Shown here piece after piece: positions 30,630-32,441 of a DNA stretch of 64,000 nucleotides (its first letter is position 1; the number at the start of each line of letters is the position of its first letter). The translations under genes were made by a program, and so were the position numbers. This DNA comes from Terriglobia bacterium. GTDB taxonomy: Bacteria; Acidobacteriota; Terriglobia; Bryobacterales; Bryobacteraceae. The stretch covers positions 124,001 through 188,000 of the forward strand of contig JAJPHN010000029.1 in the NCBI GenBank assembly GCA_021325235.1. The letters are read 5' to 3'. The notes under the pieces were generated by a model. It was not told the DNA's origin, made no database searches, and was given only the letters and a program-made list of their open reading frames with translations.

Positions 30630-31173
30630 GATCCTTCCGCTGACGCCAGAAGAGTGGCCGGCGCTCGATGACCTCTTTCGGGATGGCGGACCGTGTAGCC
30701 GTTGCTGGTGCATGTATTGGCGCATCGGGGCTCAGTATCGAAAGCAGCCGGTGGCGGAAAACAGAGCAGCGTTTCGCGAGATTGTCGATAAGGGCCCGCC
30801 GCCGGGGCTGCTGGCATTTGCGGGCGATCTGGCGGTGGGATGGTGCCAGCTCACGCCACGCAAAAATCTGCCATGGCTGGAGCAGAATTCGAAACTAAAG
30901 GCGGTAGATGATTTGCCGGTCTGGTCAATCTCCTGTTTCTACGTGCGGAAGGGTTACCGGCGTAAGGGCGTTACGGCCGCATTGATTAAGGCTGCTATCG
31001 AGTCCGCGAGCAAGGCGGGCGCTTGCGCGCTGGAGGCGTATCCGCTCGATACAAGTCTTTCGCCGAGTTCGACCAGTACCGGTCATGTAACAACGTTCGC
31101 GCGGCTCGGGTTCGTGGAGATCGTACGGCGGACGGCACCGCGGCCCATCATGCGATACGATCTGGCGCGATGA
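30604..31173 (+). CDS. GNAT-family N-acetyltransferase with CWCMYWR motif
   Basis: About 189 residues. LEILPLTPEEWPALDDLF leads to CSRCWCMYWRIG, a cysteine-rich motif known from a particular GNAT subgroup. The acetyl-CoA binding motif A follows in ISCFYVRKGYRRKGVTAALI (RKGYRRKG pyrophosphate loop), with a strand containing ALEAYPLD afterwards. GNATs acetylate amines on small molecules or proteins; the substrate is unknown. The start is GTG 30604 inside the end of the DUF35 gene, with GGAAGAG 8-10 nt upstream; the open frame extends far upstream but only as antisense-like shadow sequence. It is likely the third gene of the thiolase unit. Confidence 0.75.
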   Translation: MSLTTERLEILPLTPEEWPALDDLFRDGGPCSRCWCMYWRIGAQYRKQPVAENRAAFREIVDKGPPPGLLAFAGDLAVGWCQLTPRKNLPWLEQNSKLKAVDDLPVWSISCFYVRKGYRRKGVTAALIKAAIESASKAGACALEAYPLDTSLSPSSTSTGHVTTFARLGFVEIVRRTAPRPIMRYDLAR

Positions 31174-31174
31174 A

Positions 31175-31954
31175 TCAGTGAGCTGTTTGTACGGGTGTGG
31201 CTTTATTCGCCTGATACACCTGGTCGGCTCGGTCCATTCTCTTCTGGGTGGCAGGAGGAACCGGCCCAATCCCTTCTTTTTGCCACGCCAGGCGCTGAAT
31301 CTCACCTGGCGAACGCTCCTGGTAGTTGGCCGGCACGGAAAAGAAGGATGGATCAGGTTCTCCCTCTTTCACGCTTACCGCTTTGGTTTCGTTACGTTTG
31401 GATCCGTTCATAGTTAACAGGCTATACAGGGCCTCGCAATTTAAGGCGGAAGCTTTCCATTGCTCCAGCGTGTTCGGGGTATTACGGATATGGATCAGTT
31501 GTTTGACAACTTCGAATCCCAGGTAGGTCGTGTTTCCGAGGTTGGCCGGAGGAACGGCCGACCGAGAGTTTGCCAGGCATGTCGGATCATTAGCTCCCAT
31601 TGTCTTTAAACGCTCAATCTCGTTCTCCGAAAGCTTTGTGGTCGAGGTGGATTCCGACAGGCCATGGACGTACACCCGAACGCCCTGCGGAACGAGCGAG
31701 ATCGTTTTCGTAATAGTTGGTTGTGCGCCGCTGACGCTATCTACCACAAAACCTTCCGCGCGCGAGCCGTCCGCGCGCCGCGCCAGAAATTTGTACTCCT
31801 CATTGGTTGGCTTTCCGGCATCATCGAAAGCCGTGCTGAGATATCGAACGCTGTAGGAGTTTGTGGAGTGGGCGTGAGCGGTTTGAATGGCTTTGCCGGT
31901 GAAAAAGCCAACAACCAGGATGCATCCCAAGGCGGCCAGGTATTTCCAGTTCAT
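31175..31954 (-). CDS. Exported or membrane-anchored protein of unknown function
   Basis: A 259-residue protein with an N-terminal hydrophobic segment (LAALGCILVVGFFTGKAIQT) that may be a signal peptide or an anchor. Beta-rich and then charged helical regions follow, with a late AWQKEGIGPVPPATQKRMDR stretch. I do not recognise the family. ATG 31954 is preceded by AGGAGG with 6-nt spacing, a very strong ribosome site. It is 17 nt downstream of a frameshifted cysteine-rich secreted peptide gene, so the two were probably one operon. Base composition here is more AT-rich than the neighbours, consistent with acquired DNA but not proof of it. Confidence 0.6.
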   Translation of the reverse strand: MNWKYLAALGCILVVGFFTGKAIQTAHAHSTNSYSVRYLSTAFDDAGKPTNEEYKFLARRADGSRAEGFVVDSVSGAQPTITKTISLVPQGVRVYVHGLSESTSTTKLSENEIERLKTMGANDPTCLANSRSAVPPANLGNTTYLGFEVVKQLIHIRNTPNTLEQWKASALNCEALYSLLTMNGSKRNETKAVSVKEGEPDPSFFSVPANYQERSPGEIQRLAWQKEGIGPVPPATQKRMDRADQVYQANKATPVQTAH

Positions 31955-31971
31955 TTTTTCCTCCTACACTG

Positions 31972-32269
31972 TCATCCGCCATAACCGCACGCGCACCAAC
32001 TGTATGAGCAACCCGCCGATCGGGAGTTACAGAAGCTACTGGAGCTTCCCTCGCAATCACAGTTTTGCTCGTAGCACAACACGAATGTGCAAGGCTCCCG
32101 GCGAGGAATAGCAAGGTCCATTATTGGAGCAACATGATAGGGAGCAGTCATTGGCTCCCGTGGTGCCGCCACACTCTTGAGATTTTGCGGAACGCGCACC
32201 TAACCACAACGAGAAGGAGAGCGCAAAAAGCAACAACGCGGTTTTTCGTGGTTTGAAGTTCTTCCTCAT
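31972..32269 (-). pseudogene. Cysteine-rich secreted small protein, split by a frameshift
   Basis: ATG 32269 is preceded by GGGAGGGA and encodes a signal peptide (KTALLLFALSFSLWLGARSA) followed by a cysteine-rich stretch (ECGGTTGANDCSLSCCSNN, then GPCYSSPG). That frame then loses all cysteines and stops at about 32057. The other frame, shifted by one base, continues PCTFVLCYEQNCDCEGSSSS and SAGCSYSWCACGYGG to a stop at 31972. Joined near 32100 they give a product of about 98 residues with cysteines throughout. An 8-base word, CGGGAGCC on the minus strand, occurs both just before NDC and at the join. Either the gene is broken, the sequence has a one-base error, or a +1 shift is programmed; no classic slippery site is seen. 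Confidence 0.6.
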
Positions 32270-32441
32270 GATTCCCTCCCTGGTGAGAAAATAGACCGTG
32301 TAAAATCCAAACGCAACTGGCGGAAAATACGTAATCCGACCAGCTGATTAGGCGCTCACCCCGAGTCGGATTATCGCGAGCAGAGACCTGTTTTGAGGGT
32401 CTGAAATAGGGTATGAGTGGGGTTTGCACTTGAACAGGCAC

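What the first reader, a model, noticed from the sequence alone, without database searches (positions are those of the whole stretch)
31172..32269. Cysteine-rich secreted peptide with a frameshift, next to an uncharacterised exported protein
A strong ribosome site, signal peptide and 5 cysteines in one frame are followed, after a one-base shift, by 8 more cysteines in another. The shift lies by an 8-base word (CGGGAGCC on the minus strand) that occurs twice in the gene, consistent with an insertion or deletion there, or possibly a programmed shift. The second operon gene (start 31954, AGGAGG) is also unidentified. Small secreted cysteine-rich proteins of this size may be toxins, metal binders or protease inhibitors.
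Basis: partly seen in the sequence, partly recalled or inferred. Interest (0 to 1): 0.5.

Follow-up and report, generated by a model that had tools for sequence, protein, structure and literature searches.

The report
Broken cysteine-rich gene beside LolA-fold partner
In this acidobacterial genome a gene for a small exported cysteine-rich protein has been broken by a reading-frame change while its neighbour, an exported protein with a lipoprotein-carrier-like fold, is intact; related genomes suggest that the two genes form a recurrent, apparently unnamed pair whose first member is repeatedly lost or broken.

Summary
On the minus strand a 70-codon frame (32269-32057) has a good ribosome site, a signal peptide and 5 later cysteines. 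A second frame, one base over, carries 8 more (32091-31975) and ends 17 nt before gene B (31954-31175). Relatives indicate a broken copy of gene A in a two-gene module of Bryobacterales-type Acidobacteriota. By a mechanical rule an unbroken signal-plus-cysteine-rich ORF precedes 30 of 91 B genes and 0 of 604 control ORFs; a broken one precedes 7 of 91 and 4 of 604. Lesions in relatives differ in kind (TGA, TGA, TAG, TAA, frame shifts) and place, so decay is far likelier than a programmed shift. B is modelled (pLDDT 81) as a LolA/RseB/ependymin half-barrel; the Pfam, NCBIfam and PDB-sequence scans run found no family. Mature A is under strong purifying selection in one close pair (dN/dS about 0.02), and A and B similarities covary. 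A is repeatedly missing or broken while B stays; all 15 profile hits to A lie beside B, but 13 are the profile's own rows. The window's own A is assigned by place and make-up, not by profile score. I favour A as an exported disulfide-rich effector and B as its envelope binding, possibly protective, partner; that function is inference.

The parts
32274..32281 (-). ribosome site of gene A, AGGGAGGG
   Evidence: sequence
32057..32269 (-). gene A, first frame: signal peptide and 5 later Cys, then an out-of-register tail to a TGA
   Evidence: signal peptide judged by eye and by the hydrophobic-run rule
31972..32199 (-). gene A, second frame: open stretch with stop; its Cys-rich part is 31975-32091 (8 Cys)
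32091..32111 (-). interval between the last Cys of the first frame and the first Cys of the second, where the Cys pattern changes register
   Evidence: counted from the translations
31960..31965 (-). ribosome site of gene B, AGGAGG
31175..31954 (-). gene B, 259 aa, N-terminal signal or anchor, LolA/RseB-type half-barrel, intact
32093..32100 (.). 8-base word GGCTCCCG, first copy; not clearly above chance
32153..32160 (.). 8-base word GGCTCCCG, second copy

Best explanation
The locus is one copy of a two-gene accessory module found mainly in one family of Bryobacterales-type Acidobacteriota. Gene A encodes a Sec-exported, disulfide-rich protein (mature part 54-97 residues with 9-14 Cys in 31 unbroken relatives). 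Gene B encodes an exported protein with a LolA/RseB-type half-barrel. In this genome A has been broken by a frame-changing lesion and B is intact. Mechanism I commit to: A folds by disulfides in the periplasm and acts in the envelope or outside; B binds A in its half-barrel groove and so holds, hands over or neutralises it; the most likely use is competition, with A as effector and B as the protective partner, which is why B can outlive A. Step by step: module real 0.95 (shown by comparison); frame break is a lesion and not programmed 0.88 (comparison); B has a LolA-type fold 0.9 (model); A and B interact 0.55 (inferred); effector with protective partner 0.35 (inferred).
For: Unbroken A before B: 21 of 67 B against 3 of 634 control ORFs; second rule intact 30 of 91 against 0 of 604, broken 7 of 91 against 4 of 604. 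Lesions differ: TGA, TGA, TAA, TAG, shifts in L066, L067, L097, L151. L067 (broken) and L082 (intact) share 75% of 348 nt of A. On a tree of 84 B rows presence of A changes at least 26 times and breakage at least 9 times among 40 rows. All 15 A-profile hits in 237 genomes lie beside B. Mature A in L073/L074: 11 synonymous, 1 nonsynonymous difference. A and B similarities covary, rho 0.471, 0 of 5000 permutations, n = 23. B model pLDDT 80.8; best matches LolA, RseB, MucB, ependymin-related proteins.
Against: The two window pieces score low with the A profile: 5.2 bits (61 of 1998 shuffles as good) and 0.5 bits (576 of 2000), so this A is assigned by place and make-up. 13 of the 15 A hits are the profile's own rows, and only 21 candidates per genome were scored. 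A is not more divergent than B, unlike many toxin-immunity pairs. No link to mobile records. B without A is common, which also suits a B with duties of its own. The covariation may be shared descent. B can be broken too (split in L062 and L070), and broken B genes are under-counted because B was the search query. An assembly error in this MAG-like genome is not excluded.
Confidence: 0.4

Rival explanations
1. Same decayed module, but B is an envelope carrier or folding helper for A (LolA-like hand-over, or thiol help through the C-terminal CxxC that some B proteins have), and A is a surface, structural or metal-binding protein.
For: LolA-type fold; a C-terminal CxxC in some relatives; A kept under purifying selection in one pair.
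Against: B is often found without A (54 of 91 rows scored 'none' by the rule); the window's B lacks the CxxC.
Confidence: 0.3
2. The frame break is an assembly or sequencing error and A is intact in the living organism.
For: The genome is in 60 contigs, 95.72% complete with 4.77% contamination; no reads could be seen.
Against: Broken A genes also occur in near-closed genomes: L067 in G173 (1 contig), L049 in G087 (4 contigs); broken pattern 7 of 91 B loci against 4 of 604 controls.
Confidence: 0.12
3. Programmed frameshift or recoding makes one protein from the two frames.
For: The second frame keeps its cysteines; a tRNA-Sec above cut-off exists in G000, G111 and G173.
Against: Unbroken relatives; lesions of several kinds at several places; the window's break is a shift, not a TGA in register; G087, whose L049 has TGA, has no tRNA-Sec above cut-off. 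For L040 (TGA, tRNA-Sec present) recoding is not excluded.
Confidence: 0.04
4. B is an RseB/MucB-like envelope sensor and A its ligand or a stress-induced product.
For: RseB and MucB are among the best structural matches, Z about 10; in L003 a sigma-70-type regulator ORF lies before A (Pfam Sigma70_r2 and r4).
Against: No recurrent regulator beside the pair in the part of the neighbourhood listing that I saw (output cut in the middle).
Confidence: 0.08

Closest known systems
LolA / LolB periplasmic lipoprotein carriers
   Same: Predicted half-barrel fold: 4ki3 Z 10.2, rmsd 4.0, 140 aligned; exported.
   Different: No Pfam match at E 0.01 in 11 of 11 B proteins; paired with a Cys-rich protein; several copies in some genomes, absent from many.
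RseB / MucB envelope-stress sensors
   Same: Same N-terminal fold: 2v43 Z 10.4, rmsd 3.4, 130 aligned; 6jau Z 10.1, rmsd 3.4, 135 aligned.
   Different: 259 residues with matches over about 29-217 only; no recurrent anti-sigma or sigma gene seen beside it (cut).
Ependymin-related proteins
   Same: Best Foldseek E-values, 2.2e-8 for 6jla.
   Different: Animal secreted proteins; about 12% identity; rmsd large.
Actifensins, defensin-like bacteriocins of Actinomyces (PMC6989792; start of abstract seen)
   Same: Small, ribosomally made bacteriocins named defensin-like and described as highly divergent; as an analogy for A.
   Different: No sequence link tested; activity of A is unknown; partner differs.
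Colicin M-type bacteriocin immunity (PMC5277000; start of abstract seen)
   Different: Unrelated effector; folds not compared here.

Membership tests
LolA-type half-barrel superfamily (fold) | half-barrel of antiparallel strands covered by helices | tested here: met
   model pLDDT 80.8, pTM 0.74; Foldseek and VIA-align matches. A model, not a solved structure.
LolA family proper | sequence match to a LolA family model | tested here: not met
   no Pfam family at E 0.01 for 11 of 11 B proteins; no NCBIfam family among 4 B proteins scanned; no PDB sequence match
LolA family proper | carries lipoproteins from LolCDE to LolB | not testable with these tools
   needs biochemistry
RseB/MucB | second domain and linked anti-sigma factor gene | tested here: inconclusive
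   fold matches cover about residues 29-217; neighbourhoods, output cut
Toxin-immunity (bacteriocin) pair | partner retained where effector is lost, effector not found alone | tested here: inconclusive
   loss pattern met; effector-alone test covers one A profile, 15 hits of which 13 are its own rows
Toxin-immunity (bacteriocin) pair | A inhibits growth and B protects | not testable with these tools
   needs expression
Programmed frameshift gene | shift conserved at one place in relatives | tested here: not met
   many relatives unbroken, lesions at differing places
Selenoprotein | in-register TGA with tRNA-Sec in the genome | tested here: not met
   the window's break is a shift; stops in relatives TGA, TGA, TAA, TAG; G087 lacks tRNA-Sec above cut-off. 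Open for L040 only.

The most novel reading that the evidence does not exclude
A new class of envelope conflict (or envelope-building) system in Acidobacteriota: disulfide-rich exported effectors paired with a LolA/ependymin-fold binding protein as cognate antidote or carrier, present in one bacterial family in many divergent versions and losing the effector over and over while the partner persists.
Probability: 0.3. Interest if true: 0.7.

Novelty: new variant of a known kind. Interest (0 to 1): 0.42.

Why it matters
Acidobacteriota are abundant in soil and poorly understood (general knowledge). A recurrent, apparently unnamed gene pair (B in 83 of 237 genomes of the family at E 0.001) that joins a disulfide-rich exported protein to a lipid- or peptide-binding type of fold gives a directly testable question: does B bind A, and does it protect? 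It also shows how relatives turn an apparent programmed frameshift into a case of repeated gene decay.

Tried and rejected
Programmed frameshift: rejected on unbroken relatives and varied lesions. Selenocysteine: rejected for the window and for L049; open for L040. The 8-base repeat: not clearly above chance. Hypervariable toxin facing a conserved partner: not supported; median pairwise identity over 465 pairs is 0.27 for B and 0.30 for mature A, 0.23 leaving Cys out. Fold of an unbroken A (L100), single sequence: pLDDT 57.6, uninformative. Mobile carriers: no match in plasmids or phages with one B query, that of L043. Synteny of the window within its genus: the upstream neighbour is found in 4 of the 16 other genomes at 34-51% identity, too far for an empty-site test; dropped. 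Related loci in genome contigs with the window's B alone: none confirmed. In some searches and 59 families that are not listed are not excluded. Pfam at E up to 5 gave three weak matches below their cut-offs (DUF4006, DUF7107, DUF6309), taken as chance.

Literature: six searches; two searches returned no paper, the others listed 10 to 12 of up to 1,047, none of which is about this pair as far as titles and abstract starts show. No paper was opened.

Rows: of the matches listed I fetched 80 stretches, the first 60 mostly by score; searches use L001, L038-L097, L101 and L145-L168 (94 B ORFs in 86 loci; 91 with 300 nt upstream). L008 and L009, both with intact A, are but not. L062 and L070 count twice because their B is split. 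For the tree rows under 90 bits or under 150 residues and L062, L063, L070, L075, L159, L163, L168 were left out, L008 and L009 added; the labels of L042 and L155 (intact) and L089 and L151 (broken) were set by reading, against the rule, which says 'none'. L042 has no ATG. L043 first copy, L048, L153 and L159 look degenerate too but were not counted as broken. One search uses the 23 A proteins; L074 was never among them.

Full report
What is there. On the minus strand, ORF 32269-32057 starts behind AGGGAGGG and encodes a signal peptide followed by a stretch with 5 Cys. The next frame, open from 32199 to 31972, carries 8 Cys in its last 42 codons and ends 17 nt before the ATG of gene B. B (31954-31175, 259 aa) starts behind AGGAGG and is open throughout. 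The neighbours lie on the other strand: downstream of B a GNAT acetyltransferase ORF (Pfam PF00583, E 1.4e-7), upstream of A a 499-aa ORF that I read as VWA-like, for which Pfam gave no family at E 0.001. So A and B stand alone as a two-gene unit.

Is it more than chance. At least 8 Cys in 42 open codons is found in 2 of 924 stop-to-stop ORFs of the window and in 9 of 500 shuffles of the region. 7 Cys in 30 codons: 6 of 677 control upstream regions. The 8-base repeat is weak: 224 of 500 shuffles have some repeated 8-mer; this word occurs twice in 6 of 200 shuffles of a 4098-base stretch.

Relatives of B. A single-sequence search found B in 5 of 60 genomes, the window's own included. With a four-row profile it is in 83 of 237 genomes of the family at E 0.001. 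With an 11-row profile it is in 70 of 257 genomes of the order at E 1e-8 and in 5 of 396 genomes drawn from the phylum, the window's own included. The four named records with B are two Bryobacterales and two Acidobacteria MAGs. Some genomes hold several copies (7 matches in G155).

A beside B. In relatives an unbroken Cys-rich ORF with a signal peptide precedes B. First strict rule: 21 of 67 B against 3 of 634 controls. Second rule, which separates unbroken from broken: intact 30 of 91, broken 7 of 91, none 54 of 91; controls intact 0 of 604, broken 4 of 604. L062 is counted twice among the 30. The rule misses some: by eye L042 (no ATG) and L155 are intact and L089 and L151 broken. Unbroken mature A proteins have 9-14 Cys in 54-97 residues, n = 31; in the window the two pieces together hold up to 13.

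Reverse test. A profile of 13 A proteins hits 15 of 237 genomes, and all 15 hits lie beside a B gene; 13 are the rows of the profile itself. The two others, in G156 and G095, hold stops (TAG, TAA). So A without B was not seen, with two limits: this profile covers one part of the A diversity, and only 21 candidates per genome were scored.

Why decay. Stops in relatives: L040 TGA, L049 TGA, L089 TAA, L055 TAG; shifts by eye in L066, L067, L097, L151 and a second lesion in L055. They lie after different cysteines. L067 and L082 are close (75% nucleotide identity over 348 nt of A), one broken, one intact. On a B tree of 84 rows, presence of A changes at least 26 times, and breakage at least 9 times among the 40 rows with A; the tree is weakly resolved (17 of 81 inner branches starred). 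tRNA-Sec is above cut-off in G000, G111 and G173 but not in G087, whose L049 has a TGA; scores under the cut-off mean little, as all 14 control genomes ring at E 0.001.

A is a real protein. In the pair L073/L074 the mature part has 11 synonymous and 1 nonsynonymous differences (dS 0.262, dN 0.005), the signal part 8 and 9, and B 62 and 35. One pair only. A and B similarities covary (rho 0.471, 0 of 5000 permutations, n = 23), which may reflect joint descent.

What B is. The AF2 model from five sequences has pLDDT 80.8 and pTM 0.74; residues 1-30 and 129-140 are mostly under 50. Foldseek: ependymin-related 6jla E 2.2e-8, LolA 4ki3 2.4e-7, RseB 3m4w 1.5e-5, with TM-scores by query length of only 0.3-0.4. 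VIA-align: 2yzy Z 11.5 (rmsd 3.7, 140 aligned), RseB 2v43 10.4 (3.4, 130), LolA 4ki3 10.2 (4.0, 140), MucB 6jau 10.1 (3.4, 135); VioE and ependymin-related proteins score as well. No Pfam family at E 0.01 for 11 of 11 B and 13 of 13 A proteins, no NCBIfam family for the 9 sequences scanned, no PDB sequence match. Two Cys (C126 and C173 in the window) are invariant in the 11 rows of A7; some relatives add a C-terminal CxxC, the window does not.

How it may work. LolA-type half-barrels bind acyl chains or peptides (established knowledge). B next to A, covarying with it and outliving it, suggests that B binds A or A's target. Asymmetric loss (B without A common, A without B not seen) is what an effector with a protective partner would give; a carrier with wider duties would give it too. 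I put 0.35 on the first and 0.3 on the second.

Results against my reading. The window's two pieces score low with the A profile: 5.2 bits, matched by 61 of 1998 shuffles, and 0.5 bits, matched by 576 of 2000, so this A is assigned by place and make-up. A is not faster-evolving than B overall. No mobile-element link was found. The fold of A could not be predicted. B is sometimes broken too (L062, L070).

Noticed in passing
G000:C46:34269-34359, outside the window: The window's genome holds a tRNA-Sec (73.1 bits, cut-off 47), so selenoproteins are likely elsewhere in it.
   Followed up: no
L101 1418-1948 (+): A 176-aa ORF with a repeated C-x3-C pattern (CQEPCEVACQEPCQLSCQ...) just before an intact A gene; no Pfam family at E 0.001.
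   Followed up: partly
L043, L064, L073: Tandem copies of the A-B pair or of B alone; in L043 the first copy of A looks degenerate and the second is intact.
   Followed up: partly
L003 2716-3285 (-): A sigma-70-type regulator ORF (Pfam Sigma70_r2, Sigma70_r4) directly upstream of a broken A gene.
   Followed up: partly
L040, G111: An A gene with an in-register TGA in a genome with tRNA-Sec: the one place where a selenocysteine reading of A is not excluded.
   Followed up: partly
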